A stretch of DNA of 64,000 nucleotides, taken from Promethearchaeati archaeon (GTDB taxonomy: Archaea > Asgardarchaeota > Heimdallarchaeia > Heimdallarchaeales > Heimdallarchaeaceae). Positions 23,211 through 64,000 of the stretch are shown in pieces. The translations under genes were made by a program, and so were the position numbers. Under the pieces are notes generated by a model. That model was not told the DNA's origin and did no database searches. It was given only the letters and a program-made list of their open reading frames with translations. The stretch is from NCBI GenBank assembly GCA_013166775.1, contig JABLTJ010000006.1:1-64000 (forward strand). Reading direction: 5' to 3'. Within the stretch, counting starts at the first letter, position 1. Each line of letters opens with the position of its first letter.

Positions 23211-24593
23211 ATGAATGACGATTATTTAGATACACCTATTTCGTGGGGAAACGAAATAATTAACTTTTACATTCAAAAGGAGTATAAGAATCAAACAAAG
23301 CTTCTTCATCCTCCTGAGTTTTCGAAAGAAAAAATGTATAAAGGAACAATTGAAGAAGGATTAGACAAAGTATTGAATAATCCCATCGGTTATGATGTTA
23401 CTTTTGATGAACTTGTAAAAGAAAAATATACTGAAGGAAAACCAATAACCTTTGTCGTAGATGATCACACAAGACCAAATCTACACACAAAGATAATCTT
23501 ACCAATCATGATTGAACGAATTAAATCACTTGGAATTCCTGAAAAGGATTTTCGAGTTCTAATCGCAACTGGAACACATAGATTACCTAGAGAAGATGAA
23601 TATCCTAAGATTGTAGGAGAACCTATTTACTCAAGGTATAGAGAAAACATAGTTGCACATGATTGTGACAAAAATGTCAAAATGATTGGAGAAAGTGATG
23701 CTGGAACACCAATGGGTTTCGATAACTTGGTTTTTGAATCATCGATTCTAGTACCAATAACTGACAGTGAATTACACTATTTCGCAGGTGTAGCAGGAAC
23801 AATCAAAGAAATGTGCCCTGGGATTGCAGCAAGACAAACAGTAAGAATAAATCATCCAAAGATGTTTCACAGAGAATTTGGTTTTGTACCTGGCTGCGGT
23901 TTAGGTTGTACAGAAGAAAATCCAGTTATTACTGATATTAAAAATATGGTGAGTATTGTTAAAAAGCAAGTAACTATTTTTGGTATTGATACCATTGTTA
24001 CAGAAGGAGAAATTGTCTATATCAACGCTGGTGATCTTGTTGATTTACATGATGAAGCTTCAGATATAATAGTAGATATGAGAACTGTCAAACTTTCAAA
24101 ACCAGGAAACATAGTTATCTCTGGAATGCAAAGTTGGGGAATTAATCTCTATCAAGCTGGAAAAGGAATTCATGCAGCATGGAATGCAGTAGGTAAGGAT
24201 GGAAATAGTGAAATTATTGCTGTTGCACCTTTACCTGATAGAATTGGGAATGCCAATTACGAGAAGGTTATGATTGAAGCTAAAGATATGTCTTTACAAG
24301 AAGCTTTGGAATACATTTTAGACAACTACTGTACAGAAGATACATTCAAAATTGGTAACCAAAAACCTATAGATTCACTTCGTATTCTTAAAACAATTGG
24401 GGAAGGTAATTTGAAATTTGTTTCAAATATGGATAGCGAAGAACTAAAGATCTATAGAACAACTCCAATAAAGAAACCTGACGAAGGACCTGTTGAAGCA
24501 ATAAGAAGAGAAGTAAAAGATTATATGAGTAAAAATCCAGAAGGAATAATATACATTATGGATGATCCAGGATTGTATATTATTATTGAATAA
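23211..24593 (+). CDS. LarA-like nickel-dependent racemase (DUF2088 family)
   Basis: Member of the lactate racemase LarA family, which racemises or epimerises 2-hydroxyacids using the nickel-pincer nucleotide (NPN) cofactor. Conserved positions are visible: 'ATGTHRLP' with the catalytic His, 'HYFAGVAGTIKEMCPG' holding a His and the Lys that binds the cofactor covalently, and a following 'NHPKMF' His. The length of 460 residues is slightly above LarA. The cofactor-making genes larB, larC and larE are not in the window, so they must lie elsewhere if the protein is active. The substrate may be another hydroxyacid or sugar acid. Confidence 0.8.
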   Translation: MNDDYLDTPISWGNEIINFYIQKEYKNQTKLLHPPEFSKEKMYKGTIEEGLDKVLNNPIGYDVTFDELVKEKYTEGKPITFVVDDHTRPNLHTKIILPIMIERIKSLGIPEKDFRVLIATGTHRLPREDEYPKIVGEPIYSRYRENIVAHDCDKNVKMIGESDAGTPMGFDNLVFESSILVPITDSELHYFAGVAGTIKEMCPGIAARQTVRINHPKMFHREFGFVPGCGLGCTEENPVITDIKNMVSIVKKQVTIFGIDTIVTEGEIVYINAGDLVDLHDEASDIIVDMRTVKLSKPGNIVISGMQSWGINLYQAGKGIHAAWNAVGKDGNSEIIAVAPLPDRIGNANYEKVMIEAKDMSLQEALEYILDNYCTEDTFKIGNQKPIDSLRILKTIGEGNLKFVSNMDSEELKIYRTTPIKKPDEGPVEAIRREVKDYMSKNPEGIIYIMDDPGLYIIIE

Positions 24594-25320: not shown

Positions 25321-26514
25321 TTATGTCTCTATCTTAGATAGTATCTCTTCAAGAAATTCGATTAAAGTCTTTATTTCCTCTTCTGTGTTATAAAGATGTG
25401 TTGAGATTCTTGCTAAATCATTATATGGTAGTTCATACATGAATAAATGTGCACACAAAGCTCCACTCCTGATAATTATGTTTTTCATATCATCAAGTAT
25501 AATTGCTGTGTCATTTGCATCAAGAATATCACTTGCAAAAGTTGTAATAGGTCCATACTCAACTCCTTCGATTTCGATTAGTTCAATACTAGGTAAATTA
25601 CTAATACCCTTTCTAATCAGTGTACTAAGTTTAAGTTCATGTTCTTGAATTTTTGATAAACCGACATTTGATAAAAGCTCCAAGCTGTTTGTTAAACCCA
25701 AGATGTTTGCTAAATTCAGGATTCCACATTCAAATTTCGAACCAGAGGAAGTTAGATGAAACATTGTCTCTTCAAGAGCTATAATTGAACCACCTCCTAC
25801 TATTAGAGGATTCATTGCTTTTTCAATATCGTTGGATAGAATTTGGAGTGCTAGTCCTTGAGGTCCTAGAGCACCAACACAACTAGCTGTTAAAATGATA
25901 TCTGGTGAAATTCCATTCAATTCAATAGGCTCATGTCCTACTGAATTGCTAATATCTAAAATAAAAGTTGCTTCTATCTCATGACATAATTTTGCAATTT
26001 TCTTCCAATCTCTTTTTATCCCATTGGTAGGAGTCAATGAAGAAAGAATCAGAATATCAGCTTTGGATGTAATCTGCTCGTGTATTTTATCTGTTAGTTC
26101 TTGTTCGTCTTCAAAGTTGAGGTATTGTAGTTCATTCCCAAAAGATTGGTGGGTTTTTATTACTGGAGCAAGAATTGAATGATCTTCAAGGATACTTGTA
26201 ATAATTCTCCTCTTATCAATGGCTTCCAATGAGAACAAAGCATTTGTTAATGCTGTTTCTTTGGATGGTAAAAACGAAACCTGTGTTGTTTCTACTTTGA
26301 AGAAATCTGCTATATTCTTTCTATTATTTTCCAACTTCTTCATGCTCTCCATTGCTTCGTGATGCACACCTCTAATAGCTGCTGAACCTTCTTTCTGATA
26401 GAAGTCAACAATCGTGTCTAAAGAAGAAACGGGCATTTTACCTATGGTTGCTGAGTCAAGGTAGATCTTGTCTTCTTGTAGATTAAAATCATTTCCGAAT
26501 CTTGTAATTGTCAT
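25321..26514 (-). CDS. SufS-like class V aminotransferase fold protein lacking the PLP lysine
   Basis: Fold of group II cysteine desulfurases (SufS/CsdA). It has the 'YLDSATIG' start, 'AIRGVHHEA' motif, the PLP-stacking His in 'EDHSILAP', the pyridine-binding Asp in 'FILDISNSVGHEP', and the C-terminal mobile-loop cysteine in 'IRSGALCAHLF' (C354). The Schiff-base lysine, expected in 'SGHKxxGPxG', is replaced: the sequence reads 'SCVGALGPQG', with G214 at the lysine site. Normal PLP chemistry is therefore unlikely. The length of 397 residues is normal. A paralogue with the same loss lies just upstream on the same strand. Confidence 0.85.
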   Translation of the reverse strand: MTITRFGNDFNLQEDKIYLDSATIGKMPVSSLDTIVDFYQKEGSAAIRGVHHEAMESMKKLENNRKNIADFFKVETTQVSFLPSKETALTNALFSLEAIDKRRIITSILEDHSILAPVIKTHQSFGNELQYLNFEDEQELTDKIHEQITSKADILILSSLTPTNGIKRDWKKIAKLCHEIEATFILDISNSVGHEPIELNGISPDIILTASCVGALGPQGLALQILSNDIEKAMNPLIVGGGSIIALEETMFHLTSSGSKFECGILNLANILGLTNSLELLSNVGLSKIQEHELKLSTLIRKGISNLPSIELIEIEGVEYGPITTFASDILDANDTAIILDDMKNIIIRSGALCAHLFMYELPYNDLARISTHLYNTEEEIKTLIEFLEEILSKIET

Positions 26515-26736: not shown

Positions 26737-27930
26737 CTAAATCTCTTCCATTATCGATCTAAGGAGTTCGTTGAATTTTCTTATATCCTCTTCAGTATTA
26801 TAGACATGAGTAGAAACTTGTATGAGAGAATCCATCCCAATTTCATCCATAAACAAGTGGGAGCACAAAGCTCCGCTCCTGACTGAGATTTTTCCTAAAT
26901 CTTCTAAAATAATCGCTATATCATGAGCATCTATTTCTTCACTCATAAAAGAGAGGATGGGTCCGTATTCTACTCCATCACTTTCCATTAAACTGATTTT
27001 AGAAGCATCGTTTAATCCATCAATTATATGATCTCTCAATTTTGTTTCATAGGATTGTATTTTTTCAAATCCAATATTTTTGAGTTCTGTTAAACTATTT
27101 TCCAATCCTACAATAGCAGCTAAATTCAATTGACCAGGCTCATATTTGTTACTTCCTGAAAGTAATTTGAATGAATTGGTGTTTAGAGATACTATTGAAC
27201 CACCCCCTACTAAAAATGGTTCAAATGTCTTATCTATATCCTCAGCTAGTATCTGGAATGCTATTCCAGGTGGCCCCAATGCTCCTGAAGAACCAGAAGA
27301 AAGCACTATATCTGGAGAATGCTGAGTAAAATCATATGGTTCATGTCCAACAGAATTACTGATATCTAGAATGAAAGGAACTTCCTTTTCCTCACAAATT
27401 TTTGATATACTTCTCCAATTTCTTTTGACCCCCATACCAAGAGTCAATGATGATAAAACAACTGCTTTTGTTTCAGAGGAAATTCTTTCGTTCAATTTAT
27501 CTACAAGATTTTCTTCATCTTTAAGAGATAGAAAATCAATCTCCAAATTATATAACTCACTGATTTTTATTATTGGTGCAAGAATAGAATGATCTTCCAG
27601 TACACTGGTCAGTATTTTGCTTTTTCCAGATTTATCAAGATAAAATAGGGAATTAAGAATTGCAACTTCTCTTGAGGGTAGGAAGGATAGCTGATTAGGA
27701 GCAATACTGAATACTCTGGATATGGCATTTCTCTTTTCTTCAAGGATTTTCGAAGCTTCAATGGCCAACCTATGAGTACCTCTAATTGTCCCACCGATGT
27801 TGGTTTCATAGAAATCTTGAATCTTTTTTATCGAAGAAGTTGGAAGCCTTCCGAGAGTTGCAGAATCTAAATAGATGTCTTCATCAGGAAGTGAGAACTC
27901 TAAATCGAAATTTTGTCTATTGTTAGACAT
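26737..27930 (-). CDS. Second SufS-like paralogue lacking the PLP lysine
   Basis: Paralogue of the 25321 gene and, from the ATG at 27930, also 397 residues. The frame is open to 27984, but that extension is hydrophobic, unlike the paralogue, and overlaps a TATA-like box. Motifs are kept in order ('YLDSATLGRLP', 'EDHSILAP', 'FILDISNSVGHEP', cysteine in 'VRSGALCSHLFM'). The lysine region reads 'SGSSGALGPPG', again with Gly at the lysine site. The two genes are separated by 222 bp in which I see no gene. Tandem duplication came after, or together with, loss of the lysine. Confidence 0.85.
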   Translation of the reverse strand: MSNNRQNFDLEFSLPDEDIYLDSATLGRLPTSSIKKIQDFYETNIGGTIRGTHRLAIEASKILEEKRNAISRVFSIAPNQLSFLPSREVAILNSLFYLDKSGKSKILTSVLEDHSILAPIIKISELYNLEIDFLSLKDEENLVDKLNERISSETKAVVLSSLTLGMGVKRNWRSISKICEEKEVPFILDISNSVGHEPYDFTQHSPDIVLSSGSSGALGPPGIAFQILAEDIDKTFEPFLVGGGSIVSLNTNSFKLLSGSNKYEPGQLNLAAIVGLENSLTELKNIGFEKIQSYETKLRDHIIDGLNDASKISLMESDGVEYGPILSFMSEEIDAHDIAIILEDLGKISVRSGALCSHLFMDEIGMDSLIQVSTHVYNTEEDIRKFNELLRSIMEEI

Positions 27931-28016
27931 GTATAATGAGAACAAAACATGTACTATTATAAAATATTTGTTTGAAAACATCATTTTTTTATATTAGGCT
28001 ACTTTTTCGCTGATTA

Positions 28017-28500: not shown

Positions 28501-28520
28501 AAGATGTACTTATGTGGTTG

Positions 28521-29015
28521 ATGAGTGTTAGTCCAATCAAGAAAGAATTCCCTGATGATATGGATAATATCAGGGACGCAATGAAATTGGAAAAATACAT
28601 TTGTCCGCATAGAGGAATAAACTATCCCTGTGTAATCTGCAAAGATTGCAGAGATATGGATCTAAGACAATTTCCTCTAAAAAATGGTTTTATTGAGAAA
28701 ACCAAGAATTCAAGTTTAATTTCACTTATTTTAGAACTCAGAGATCCATTCGATGACATGCTGTTAAGAAGGTTAAGTTTTGCACTTTCAGAAGCAACTG
28801 GAATTGTTCAAAAAGAACCAGAACCAGGTTTTTCGATCACATTCTATATCTCTGAAGCACTAATGGAAAAAGTACAAGAACCTGAAAAATTAGTGAAATT
28901 CATCTCAAATTTTCAACACACTTTCCTCTCAGAGACAATAGCTGCACGAAGTGCAATAAACAAATGGGAACGGACCACAACAAAAAGATTACTCTGGGAT
29001 ATGAGCATAGTTTAG
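28521..29015 (+). CDS. Hypothetical protein with a Cys/His cluster
   Basis: Unrecognised protein of about 164 residues. Near the N terminus is a compact cluster, 'CPHRGINYPCVICKDC', with four cysteines and a histidine that could bind zinc or an Fe-S cluster. The rest looks like a soluble alpha/beta domain ending in helices. There are no close gene partners. The next gene, a radical SAM enzyme, is convergent. Confidence 0.6.
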   Translation: MSVSPIKKEFPDDMDNIRDAMKLEKYICPHRGINYPCVICKDCRDMDLRQFPLKNGFIEKTKNSSLISLILELRDPFDDMLLRRLSFALSEATGIVQKEPEPGFSITFYISEALMEKVQEPEKLVKFISNFQHTFLSETIAARSAINKWERTTTKRLLWDMSIV

Positions 29016-29040: not shown

Positions 29041-30186
29041 TCAGGAAACGCTCTTCCAATATACTCCTAAATCATCAGCATGCTTCCTAACATTATACAT
29101 TTCTGAAGTAGTTGGCTTTTTTTTGATTTCAGGATACATCTCTGTTCTAAGAACCTTATACTCAGGTCTGTATTGACCCATAATATTAACTAAAGGAGTC
29201 TTTAGATTTTCGTTCACCCAATTTAGAATTGGAATTGAACAACAGTTTGTGTGGTTGGGCATTACAAGATGTCGAATGATGTATTCTCCACTTCCCCGTT
29301 CCTCTATCATTTTCATATTTCGTTGAAGAGCTTCCCAGTATTTAGATGCTTTAGAATATTTAGTTGCGCAATCGTTGTTACTATACTTCATATCTGGCAA
29401 CCAAATATCGAAAACGTCTACTAGAATCTTCATGCTAGTTTCAGTAAGATACATATTACTATTCCAGAGCATAGGTAAATCTACCTGAGCTTCCAAGAAG
29501 GACTCTAAAATTAAATGAAGGTTGGGTGTAGGTTCTCCACCAACAAAGTTAATATTTCTAACGCCTTGACTCTTTAGACTATAATACATTTGAGCTAAAT
29601 CTAATGGAGTATGACCTTTACCTTTGAATCTTTCAAATGCAAATTCTTGACTTATATCGTGGTTCTGACAAAAGACACATTGGAATGTACAACCATAAAA
29701 GAAAATTGTTCCACTAGGCACAATAGGACTCTCTTCTCCCATATGAACAAAAGCTGAAGAGATGTAAGCTTGTCCATCAACACCGCAATTACCTATTTTA
29801 CCTCCAGCTCTGTCAGCTTTACATCTATTCTCACAGAATTCACAAGCAGAGAGTATATCCTTTGTTATCATAACCTTGAGCTTTAGATAGTTATTCTTCC
29901 GTATTTCTTCTTCCTTATGTTTAGCAAAAACTTCTTTTTCTATATCCTCAAGAGGTACAGTTTGTTTTTCTTCTAACCACGTTTTGAATTTTGTATGATA
30001 ATGTTCATGAATGTCCAAAAGATCTTTCTGTGATTTCTTCTCATCAATAGGTACATAAAACAAGCGTGCAAGTTTATATCTAGGGATTCTTTTTCCTTGG
30101 AAGATTTCTCTGTACTCAACTAATCTATCTTTAAGTTCAAATTGTTGCCAGACAGACATAGCATCTCTTCTTTGTAAAGCCCACAT
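29041..30186 (-). CDS. PflX-like radical SAM protein
   Basis: Radical SAM enzyme of the COG1313 (PflX / putative pyruvate formate-lyase activating enzyme-like) group. The [4Fe-4S] motif is 'YGCTFQCVFCQN'. An upstream cysteine motif 'CEFCENRCKADR' (about residues 117-128) and 'GNCG' match the family. The N-terminal 100 residues form an extra helical region not usual in short members. The glycine-rich 'FVGGEPTPN' SAM-binding strand is present. The substrate is unknown. Two AmrS-like relatives lie at 14669 and 31067. Confidence 0.78.
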   Translation of the reverse strand: MWALQRRDAMSVWQQFELKDRLVEYREIFQGKRIPRYKLARLFYVPIDEKKSQKDLLDIHEHYHTKFKTWLEEKQTVPLEDIEKEVFAKHKEEEIRKNNYLKLKVMITKDILSACEFCENRCKADRAGGKIGNCGVDGQAYISSAFVHMGEESPIVPSGTIFFYGCTFQCVFCQNHDISQEFAFERFKGKGHTPLDLAQMYYSLKSQGVRNINFVGGEPTPNLHLILESFLEAQVDLPMLWNSNMYLTETSMKILVDVFDIWLPDMKYSNNDCATKYSKASKYWEALQRNMKMIEERGSGEYIIRHLVMPNHTNCCSIPILNWVNENLKTPLVNIMGQYRPEYKVLRTEMYPEIKKKPTTSEMYNVRKHADDLGVYWKSVS

Positions 30187-31066: not shown

Positions 31067-32107
31067 ATGAATCTAATGACTGAATCTACGTTACATGAAG
31101 CTGAATTCTATGAATTAATAGATTATGATGAGCAAATAGTATGTTGCCACTTATGTCCTCATGAATGTAAATTAGAATCAGGGGAAAGGGGAATCTGTAA
31201 AGCTCGAAAGAACATTTTTGGAAAGCTATACAACCTAAATTATGGTTTTACAGAAATGAGAATAGATTTGATAGAAAAACAGCATGTTTATCATTTTTTC
31301 CCAAATTCAAGAGCGCAAACATTCGTAACATTCAATTGTAATCTTGACTGCGATTTCTGTACTGATCCTCTAAAATCCTTCATAGATCCAGAGAAGAATC
31401 CTGCAAAAAAACTTTCACCAGATCAAGCAATTATGTTTGGAATGGCTTCAGGTTCAAAGGTAATATGTTTCGGAGAATCTGAACCTCTTATCTCGTATGA
31501 ATGGGTAAGAGATACTGCAAAATTAGCAAAGGAAAGAGGTTTGAAAGTACTATTAAGAACAAATGGTTATTTCAAAGAAGCTCCTTTGAGAGAAATTTTA
31601 AGATTTGTTGATGCTGTTAAAATCGATATTAAAGCTACTAATAATGAAGGTTATATCAGATTATGTGGTGGTGGAAATTTCGAACATGTCAAAAACTCAA
31701 TTAAGATTATTCATGAAATGGAGAAACTGATTGAATTATCAATAGTAATCCACGATACTTTTAATAATGCTGAGGAGTCAGTAAGAAAATTATCTGACTG
31801 GATAAAGACTGAACTCTCACCAGGTGTTCCATTACACTTATCAAGATTAAAACCTGCTCATAGAACAAAACATCTACTTCCTACTTCACTTGAATTATTG
31901 GAAAAAACTTACAATATAGCAAAAGAAATGGGATTACAGTTTGTTTATCTAGATGATGTTCCTGATCATGATTCAGGAAATACATACTGTCCTCAATGTG
32001 GAGAATTATTAATCAAAAGAACTTCAATCGGAACTGAAGCAAGAAGAATATCTTTACAAGGCCACTGCAATAAATGTCAATCTCCTTTGAAGATAATAAT
32101 GTCATAG
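31067..32107 (+). CDS. AmrS-like radical SAM protein, second copy
   Basis: Paralogue of the 14669 enzyme. It has the N-terminal 'CHLCPHECKL' and 'GICKARKN' motifs, the [4Fe-4S] motif 'NCNLDCDFC' (about residue 97), and a C-terminal zinc-ribbon-like pair, 'YCPQCG' and 'HCNKCQ'. The cluster motif is followed by 'TDPLKSF' rather than the usual Q-N, suggesting a different substrate. The start is the ATG at 31067 or 31076, after an A/T-rich TATA-like region at 31030-31049. Reaction unknown. Confidence 0.8.
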   Translation: MNLMTESTLHEAEFYELIDYDEQIVCCHLCPHECKLESGERGICKARKNIFGKLYNLNYGFTEMRIDLIEKQHVYHFFPNSRAQTFVTFNCNLDCDFCTDPLKSFIDPEKNPAKKLSPDQAIMFGMASGSKVICFGESEPLISYEWVRDTAKLAKERGLKVLLRTNGYFKEAPLREILRFVDAVKIDIKATNNEGYIRLCGGGNFEHVKNSIKIIHEMEKLIELSIVIHDTFNNAEESVRKLSDWIKTELSPGVPLHLSRLKPAHRTKHLLPTSLELLEKTYNIAKEMGLQFVYLDDVPDHDSGNTYCPQCGELLIKRTSIGTEARRISLQGHCNKCQSPLKIIMS

Positions 32108-62232: not shown

Positions 62233-62508
62233 ATGAAGTCAGGTGTCAATTGGTTGCATCAACGATTTGTTAGCTCCATAGTAGAAAGTTGTACAAAAGA
62301 CCAAAGCTATGTAATCATGTTAAAATGGGATGCAATAAATGAAGTTCATACGAAACTAAAACAGAAGTGTGAACTAGTACAACAAATAGGTGGTATTATA
62401 GAGAAATACCAATATAAGGATTTAAAAATATCCTTCTATAAAACAGGAAAACTGTTGCTAACAAATGTGAATCATATAGATGTTTTGCTGAAAGAACTAT
62501 TCAAGTGA
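62233..62508 (+). CDS. Hypothetical protein, 91 residues, at the head of the iscS-like/iscU unit
   Basis: Unrecognised small alpha/beta protein with two cysteines ('VESCTKD' and 'KQKCELV') and an amphipathic C terminus. It is translated just before the IscS-like gene: its TGA stop lies inside GTGAT, the ribosome-binding site for the next ATG. Its place suggests an accessory role in iron-sulfur assembly, but no domain is recognised. Confidence 0.6.
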   Translation: MKSGVNWLHQRFVSSIVESCTKDQSYVIMLKWDAINEVHTKLKQKCELVQQIGGIIEKYQYKDLKISFYKTGKLLLTNVNHIDVLLKELFK

Positions 62509-62513
62509 TAACA

Positions 62514-63725
62514 ATGTCTAACGTTGAAGATTTATTAAAACAACACGGAAAGGCAATCAAAGAAGTATATCTAGATTGGGAGAATGGTACAAGAATAGAA
62601 GAAGAAGTGCTTGAAGCAATGAAACCATTTTATTTAGAAAAACAATTTGGCAATCCTGCAATTACGCATAGAGTTGGTTGGGAGACGTATGATTTTTATG
62701 TAAAAGCAAAAACAACTCTAGCAAAACCTCTGAATGTTCAACCACAATCCATCGCGTTAACTCATAGCTTCACTGAATCCAATAATCTAGCTATCAAAGG
62801 TTTAGCGAAGATGAATAAAAAAAGAAAGAAAATTATTGTCTCTGAAGTAGAACATCTTAGTGTTATTCATACTGCCAAATCTATGTTCAGTGATGACTAC
62901 AAAGTAGTGATTTTACCTGTTTCAAATGATGGAACTGTGAATGTCGACATGCTTCAAGAGGAACTAGATAGTGAAACTTTGCTAGTTAGTTTACAATCTA
63001 TCAATCATGAAATTGGGACAATACAACCGGTAAGAGAAGCTTTGGAAATTGTAAAAGACTTCGATGAGAAAATATTCTTTCATACTGATGCTACTTCGGC
63101 TTTTGGAAGAATTCCTCTAGATCTGAGTAATTTAGATGTTGATTTAGCTTCCTTCAGTAGTAATAGAATACTTGGTCCAAAAGGGATTGCTGGGTTGTAT
63201 ATCAAGGAAGGGATAAAACTAAAATCAATTTATGAAGGGCAACTCAGTGTTGAAACTCTCTCACCAGATGTGGAAAATCCTGCATTACTTGCTGGTTTTG
63301 CGAAAGCAGTGGAATTGCAATTTAAGCAGTTTGAAGAAATAAGAGAACATACAATTAAACTTAGGGATAAATTGATGTATGGGTTGCATACAAGTATTGA
63401 GCGAACTGATATTAATGGTCCTGCAGGAAATAGAAGAGCACCTGACAATGTTAACATAAGTTTCCTTGGATGCGAAGGTGAAGCGTTAACAGTCGATTCT
63501 TCAATGAACGGCATTTATGCTTCAAGTGGAAGTGCTTGCACTAGTAGAGTATTAATGCCAAGTCATATACTTACAGCAATTGGTCGGAAACCTGAGGAAG
63601 CTCATGGAAGTTTATTGATGAAAGTCAATAGATTAAACACTGAAGAAGAAATAGATTACGTATTAGAAAAAATGCCTAAAATTATTGAGAGAATAAGATC
63701 AATAACGGGTGGAATACAAATTTAG
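62514..63725 (+). CDS. IscS-like protein lacking the PLP-binding lysine
   Basis: Fold of NifS/IscS group I cysteine desulfurases: 'VYLDWENGT', 'FTESNNLAIKG', the PLP-stacking His in 'VEHLSV', PLP-ring Asp in 'FHTDATSAFG', and the mobile-loop cysteine in 'SSGSACTSRVLMP' (codon at 63537-63539). The lysine that forms the Schiff base (normally S-x-H-K-x-x-G-P-K-G) is replaced: 'SSNRILGPKG' has Asn-Arg for His-Lys (Arg codon 63165-63167). Desulfurase activity is therefore unlikely. The gene is next to iscU, as in A. fulgidus, whose IscS also lacks this lysine. The ATG at 62514 is chosen because GTGAT lies 4 nt upstream; the frame opens at a GTG at 62505. Confidence 0.9.
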   Translation: MSNVEDLLKQHGKAIKEVYLDWENGTRIEEEVLEAMKPFYLEKQFGNPAITHRVGWETYDFYVKAKTTLAKPLNVQPQSIALTHSFTESNNLAIKGLAKMNKKRKKIIVSEVEHLSVIHTAKSMFSDDYKVVILPVSNDGTVNVDMLQEELDSETLLVSLQSINHEIGTIQPVREALEIVKDFDEKIFFHTDATSAFGRIPLDLSNLDVDLASFSSNRILGPKGIAGLYIKEGIKLKSIYEGQLSVETLSPDVENPALLAGFAKAVELQFKQFEEIREHTIKLRDKLMYGLHTSIERTDINGPAGNRRAPDNVNISFLGCEGEALTVDSSMNGIYASSGSACTSRVLMPSHILTAIGRKPEEAHGSLLMKVNRLNTEEEIDYVLEKMPKIIERIRSITGGIQI

Positions 63726-63737
63726 AAGGAAAAGAAA

Positions 63738-64000
63738 ATGTCAAGTAGAATACCATTACCATATGCTCCAAGAGTCCTTGAGTTATTTCAAAATCCACAA
63801 AATTTAGGAAGAATGGAAAATGCTACTATTACTTCATCAGCTGGAAGTCCAGCTTGTGGTGATATGATCGCATTTTATCTTTTAATTGATGAAAAAAGTG
63901 AAGTAATAACTAAATCAAGCTTTGAAAGCTATGGTTGCGCAAGCAATATCGCAGCTGCAAGTCAACTAACAATTATGATAGAAAATAAAACTCTAGAGGA
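63738..64000 (+). CDS. iscU: IscU-like iron-sulfur scaffold protein (partial, runs off the end)
   Basis: N-terminal part (87 codons visible) of an IscU/NifU-type scaffold on which Fe-S clusters are built. The first cluster ligands are present: Cys and Asp in 'GSPACGDMIAF', and the second Cys in 'ESYGCASNIAAASQL'. The third ligand cysteine lies beyond the window. It starts 12 nt after the IscS-like gene with GAAGGA upstream. The Asp in 'CGD' is the residue known to control cluster release. Confidence 0.9.
   Translation, partial: MSSRIPLPYAPRVLELFQNPQNLGRMENATITSSAGSPACGDMIAFYLLIDEKSEVITKSSFESYGCASNIAAASQLTIMIENKTLE

What the first reader, a model, noticed from the sequence alone, without database searches (positions are those of the whole stretch)
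62514..64000. IscS-like protein without PLP lysine coupled to IscU
The protein is a clear IscS homologue, but the Schiff-base lysine region reads S-S-N-R-I-L-G-P-K-G, with Arg for Lys (codon 63165-63167) and Asn for the preceding His. The PLP-ring Asp and the mobile-loop cysteine stay. Archaeoglobus fulgidus IscS is a published case where the lysine is lost, desulfurase activity is absent, and IscS may supply a cysteine ligand to the IscU-bound cluster. The same arrangement here, with a 91-residue orphan in front, suggests Fe-S assembly from free sulfide in this lineage.
Basis: partly seen in the sequence, partly recalled or inferred. Interest (0 to 1): 0.8.

Follow-up and report, generated by a model that had tools for sequence, protein, structure and literature searches.

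The report
Lysine-less MisS partner of IscU scaffold
A Heimdall archaeon, from the group closest to eukaryotes, makes iron-sulfur clusters with a cysteine desulfurase homologue that has lost its catalytic lysine and most of its cofactor pocket but keeps its mobile cysteine and its IscU partner; relatives suggest the sulfur comes from a separate working desulfurase (SufS), with a small conserved cysteine protein alongside.

Summary
The IscS-type protein at 62505-63725 reads SSNRILGPKG, with Arg221 (AGA, 63165-63167) for the Schiff-base Lys and Asn for the preceding His. PLP-ring Asp195 and mobile-loop Cys345 remain, and a complete iscU follows. Orthologues in about 20 Heimdallarchaeal genomes show the same, under strong purifying selection (dN/dS about 0.06). 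The damage goes beyond the lysine: equivalents of N155, Q183, H205, R354 and the RSGT motif are also gone. The closest solved structure is A. fulgidus IscS (Lys to Asp), but the tree rejects a shared loss; lysine was lost at least three times in archaeal MisS (to Asp, Arg, Thr).

The free-sulfide inference is not supported as stated. A complete Lys-bearing SufS-type desulfurase is kept in 21 of 23 genomes of this family. In related lineages it sits beside misSU (misS-misU-sufS-orphan). The '91-residue orphan' is a real family that tracks this MisS clade, with one invariant Cys. SufB/D is undetected in the window genome and most of its genus.

Best reading: MisS is a PLP-dead platform and Cys-ligand partner for MisU, and sulfur is supplied in trans, most likely by SufS. 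New variant of a known kind; no biochemistry was done.

The parts
62505..63725 (+). misS: IscS/NifS-type (type I) desulfurase homologue without PLP lysine, 406 aa (ATG at 62514)
   Evidence: AF2 model pLDDT 92.2, Foldseek top hit 4eb7
63162..63167 (+). Asn220-Arg221 codons (AAT AGA) in place of His-Lys of the Schiff-base motif
   Evidence: residue table
63087..63089 (+). Asp195, equivalent of E. coli IscS Asp180 (PLP ring nitrogen), retained
63537..63539 (+). Cys345, equivalent of E. coli IscS Cys328 (mobile loop), retained in every relative examined
   Evidence: loop has low pLDDT (344-349), i.e. modelled as flexible
63738..64000 (+). misU/iscU scaffold (165 aa; runs past the window edge to contig position 64235); three Cys, Asp, LPxVK and HC motifs kept; only IscU in the genome
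62233..62508 (+). 91-aa partner protein ('orphan'); conserved family with invariant Cys20; predicted beta-beta-alpha-beta4-alpha fold, TBP-like half domain (weak)

Best explanation
This is the misSU locus of a Heimdall archaeon whose MisS has become a PLP-dead pseudo-desulfurase. It still folds as an IscS, is expected to dock MisU, and presents its mobile-loop cysteine (Cys345) to the three MisU cysteines, as a ligand or persulfide relay during [2Fe-2S] assembly, as proposed for A. fulgidus IscS. Sulfur is made elsewhere, most likely by the complete SufS-type desulfurase kept in the genome, possibly with the 91-aa single-Cys partner as adaptor or carrier. Shown here: sequence, loss of the PLP and substrate residues, conservation, adjacency, independent losses. 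Inferred: no activity, the docking and ligand role, and the sulfur route.
For: Lys plus four further PLP/substrate positions and the RSGT motif lost while Cys loop and fold are kept. dN/dS 0.05-0.07 across pairs, so functional and not decaying. Lys/Arg exchange inside the family, with Arg in three codons, suggests the site needs a positive charge, not an aldimine. MisU fully conserved and adjacent. Published precedent: A. fulgidus IscS lacks desulfurase activity and supplies a Cys ligand to IscU's cluster (PMC7585200; PDB 4eb5/4eb7). SufS with all ten catalytic positions in 21/23 family genomes (residues read in 11 sequences). SufS next to misSU in Asgard families f10, f12, f23 and in Culexmicrobium. 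Partner protein present exactly where misS is found in family f1 (20/20) and at or near the misSU locus in f9, f12 and Culexmicrobium; Cys20 and Gly72 the only invariant residues.
Against: No biochemistry. Three family members still have Lys at the site (L028, L035, L068), so some may keep weak PLP chemistry. In family f1 and in G002 SufS is not near misSU (1.6 Mb away in the one-contig genome G008), and the f1 SufS falls in a different SufS subclade from the misSU-linked ones, so its link to MisU is inference. A second Lys cannot be excluded: invariant Lys exist elsewhere (69, 105, 108, 109, 184, 226, 267, 289). The partner's fold matches are weak (best E 0.12).
Confidence: 0.6

Rival explanations
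1. MisS is PLP-dead and MisSU builds clusters from free sulfide, SufS serving other thiolation pathways.
For: Lys loss; SmsCB systems use sulfide (PMC12192291) and M. maripaludis uses sulfide (PMC7585200); f1 SufS is not linked to misSU; TusA-type carriers present, so SufS has other possible clients.
Against: Complete SufS conserved in 21/23 genomes; SufS adjacent to misSU in sister lineages with the same degraded MisS pocket; SufB/D, the documented sulfide-using scaffold, undetected in the window genome.
Confidence: 0.25
2. MisS still binds PLP non-covalently or through another lysine and has residual or different chemistry.
For: Asp195, His117, Thr90 and Ser218 of the pocket remain; Lys persists in three family members.
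Against: Equivalents of N155, Q183, H205, K206, R354 and the RSGT phosphate motif all lost together; no Lys near the motif except Lys226 of GPKG, which occurs in most IscS proteins and so is not a new one.
Confidence: 0.12
3. The substitution is an assembly or binning artefact or a decaying gene.
For: Window genome is a MAG (88.7% complete, 4.5% contamination).
Against: Same change in many independent assemblies from different projects; dN/dS about 0.06; ORF and MisU intact.
Confidence: 0.01

Closest known systems
Archaeoglobus fulgidus IscS-IscU (IscS2, PDB 4eb5/4eb7/4hvk/4r5f)
   Same: IscS fold, adjacent IscU, Schiff-base Lys lost, preceding His to Asn, Q183 and R354 equivalents changed, Cys loop kept
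   Different: Lys to Asp there, Arg here; N155 and RSGT also lost here; independent origin, one-clade hypothesis rejected (p 1.5e-47); the partner protein is not found with the Asp type
Methanosarcina acetivorans IscS1/IscU1
   Same: archaeal iscSU pair whose IscS lacks the lysine (PMC7585200)
   Different: not compared by sequence here; IscU1 is 24 kDa against 165 aa here; that organism also has Lys-bearing IscS2 and IscS3
MIS (minimal iron-sulfur) system, MisS-MisU
   Same: two-gene IscS/IscU module without the ISC chaperones and carriers (PMC12442378, PMC12192291)
   Different: MIS is described with an active desulfurase; here MisS is degraded and a third conserved gene is present
SufS (type II desulfurase)
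   Same: sulfur source for scaffold assembly; gene beside misSU in related lineages
   Different: normally pairs with SufE/SufU and SufBCD; SufB/D undetected in the window genome

Membership tests
IscS/NifS type I cysteine desulfurase (homology) | whole-length sequence and fold similarity to IscS/NifS | tested here: met
   NifS model 353.5 bits (below the 530.75 equivalog cut-off); A. fulgidus IscS E 1e-82; AF2 and Foldseek
IscS/NifS type I cysteine desulfurase (enzyme) | Schiff-base lysine | tested here: not met
   Arg221
IscS/NifS type I cysteine desulfurase (enzyme) | PLP and substrate residues N155, Q183, H205, R354, RSGT | tested here: not met
   His, Ser, Asn, Leu, SPDV
IscS/NifS type I cysteine desulfurase (enzyme) | mobile-loop cysteine and PLP Asp | tested here: met
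   Cys345, Asp195
A. fulgidus-type non-desulfurase IscS | Lys lost, Cys loop and adjacent IscU kept | tested here: met
A. fulgidus-type non-desulfurase IscS | common descent with the Asp (SSND) clade | tested here: not met
   tree; AU test p 1.5e-47
A. fulgidus-type non-desulfurase IscS | IscS Cys is a ligand to the IscU cluster | not testable with these tools
   Cys present in all relatives; needs structure or spectroscopy
MIS system (MisSU) | adjacent misS and misU without hscAB, iscA or fdx in the cluster | tested here: met
   neighbourhood; relatives
MIS system (MisSU) | active cysteine desulfurase | not testable with these tools
   predicted inactive from residues

The most novel reading that the evidence does not exclude
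A hybrid Fe-S assembly machine: a type II SufS mobilises sulfur, a new single-Cys small protein (TBP-like fold) carries or gates it, and a type I pseudo-desulfurase serves only as platform and cysteine ligand for MisU. Desulfurase catalysis and scaffold docking, normally one protein, would be split between two homologues, with the platform role reached repeatedly by independent lysine losses in archaea, including relatives of eukaryotes.
Probability: 0.3. Interest if true: 0.8.

Novelty: new variant of a known kind. Interest (0 to 1): 0.62.

Why it matters
If true, IscS has an IscU-assembly role separable from desulfuration, strong enough to be kept for long periods after the enzyme died, and evolution reached that state several times. 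That makes a disputed point testable: what the IscS-IscU complex does beyond handing over sulfur. It also gives a concrete sulfur route (SufS in trans) and a new candidate component, the Cys20 partner protein, in close archaeal relatives of eukaryotes.

Tried and rejected
Shared descent with the A. fulgidus Lys-less clade: rejected. Union with the Thr-type MisS of L096/L097: rejected, p 2e-4. Orphan as a chance ORF: rejected. SufBC/SMS as the genome's main route: no SufB/D match in the window genome and only 4 of 21 genomes of its genus. Misassembly or pseudogene: rejected. Partner fold by structure search: only weak hits (RNase H3 N-domain, TBP), not used as proof. The f1 SufS as orthologue of the misSU-linked SufS: the quick tree puts it in another subclade.

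Full report
1. Observation. The ORF 62505-63725 (+) encodes a 406-residue IscS/NifS-type protein. The Schiff-base motif reads SSNRILGPKG; Arg221 is codon AGA at 63165-63167 and Asn220 replaces the usual His. Asp195 and Cys345 are kept. The next gene (63738, running beyond the window to contig position 64235) is a complete IscU with all cluster residues.

2. More than the lysine. Aligned to E. coli IscS, the protein has also changed N155 to His, Q183 to Ser, H205 to Asn, R354 to Leu and the phosphate motif RSGT to SPDV, while T76, H104, D180, S203 and C328 stay. The roles of these E. coli residues are established knowledge. The predicted fold is a confident IscS fold (pLDDT 92.2) whose nearest solved structures are the A. 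fulgidus IscS-IscU complex and its IscS.

3. Not an artefact. Orthologues at 62-91% identity occur in about 20 Heimdallarchaeal genomes. Of 20 distinct family sequences 17 have Arg (AGA, AGG or CGG) and 3 have Lys (L028, L035, L068); all 20 lack the other residues. dN/dS between pairs is 0.05-0.07. The Lys/Arg exchange, with Arg held through different codons, suggests the site is kept for its charge and no longer for an aldimine (inference).

4. Evolution. A maximum-likelihood tree of 84 proteins, built without the catalytic columns, places the window family (20 rows, support 100/100) inside a 32-row clade (100/99) whose other members keep Lys but already lack Q183 and R354 and show Pro-Gly-Val or Pro-Gly-Thr in place of Ser-Gly-Thr of the RSGT motif. 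The A. fulgidus type (SSND), widespread in other Asgard families, is a separate clade (100/98). A third type with Thr occurs in L096/L097. Joining the Asp type with the window family is rejected (p 1.5e-47), as is joining the Thr type with it (p 2e-4). So lysine was lost at least three times.

5. The '91-residue orphan' is not an orphan. A profile search of 228 Asgard genomes finds it in 25: all 20 family-f1 genomes in which misS was found, and none of the three without (one of these, G018, has misU at a contig end), plus G002 and the four f12 genomes; a homologue lies at the Culexmicrobium locus L023. It precedes misS in f1, follows misU in G002 and follows sufS in f12. Across these lineages only Cys20 and Gly72 are invariant. 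The model (pLDDT 87) is beta-beta-alpha-beta4-alpha, with Cys20 in the first loop; the best fold matches, RNase H3 N-domain and TBP, are weak.

6. Sulfur source. The window genome has a Lys-bearing SufS-type protein at G000:C51:13478-14740 with all ten positions compared to E. coli SufS intact (THNDQSHKCR), present in 21 of 23 family genomes at 71-100% identity. In f12 the order is misS-misU-sufS-partner. In f23 (G165, G167, G168, G169), f10 (G003, G004) and Culexmicrobium, sufS lies within about 3 kb of misSU, and in G001 it lies next to an SSND-type MisS. My rough estimate: a random gene falls within 3 kb of another in a 2-Mb genome about 0.3% of the time, so four separate lineages are not chance. 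In f1 the two genes are apart (1.6 Mb in G008), and the f1 SufS belongs to another SufS subclade, so for the window organism the link is inference.

7. Other machinery. No SufB/D domain was found in the window genome, and only in 4 of 21 genomes of its genus, so MisSU is the only recognised scaffold pair found here. An Mrp/NBP35-type ATPase and three TusA-domain loci are present. The MAG is 88.7% complete, so absences in it alone are provisional.

8. Mechanism. Most likely MisS works like A. fulgidus IscS: no desulfuration, but MisU docking and a cysteine ligand (PMC7585200). Sulfur would come in trans from SufS, perhaps through the Cys20 protein, or from sulfide.

9. Novelty. Lys-less archaeal IscS is published. 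I found no paper in the held library that reports the Arg type, the independent losses, the partner family or the SufS linkage, but that library is partial.

Noticed in passing
window 25321-26514 (-) and 26737-27984 (-): Tandem pair of SufS-like proteins that also lack the Schiff-base Lys (TASCVGALGPQG and SSGSSGALGPPG) and the PLP-stacking His, but keep the RSGALC cysteine; found in nearly all family-f1 genomes, with Lys absent in every orthologue read. In four genomes the pair lies about 30 kb from misSU. Function unknown; possibly a heteromeric pseudo-desulfurase.
   Followed up: partly
L087, L090, L092-L094, L099, L101-L105, L107-L109, L111, L112, L115, L122, L123: A. fulgidus-type SSND MisS is widespread in other Asgard families, often with a long (about 260 aa) IscU; several of these genomes also hold a separate Lys-bearing IscS.
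   Followed up: partly
L096:2758-3930 (-) and L097:2538-3716 (+): A third lysine-less MisS type (SHT: Lys to Thr, with H104D, N155Q, Q183H), next to misU in L096.
   Followed up: partly
L072-L074, L077: MisS with Lys kept but the PLP-stacking His changed to Pro and H205 to Tyr, in the misS-misU-sufS-partner clusters.
   Followed up: no
L091, L110: IscU homologues with the first cluster Cys changed to Asp (NPADGDLV, NPEDGDLV).
   Followed up: no
window 28512-29015 (+): Weak but above-cut-off match to ARPC4, an Arp2/3 complex subunit (31.4 bits), a possible eukaryotic signature protein.
   Followed up: no
window 23211-24593 (+): LarA-like (lactate racemase N-terminal domain) protein near the SufS-like pair, with radical SAM genes at 29041-30186 and 31067-32107.
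   Followed up: no
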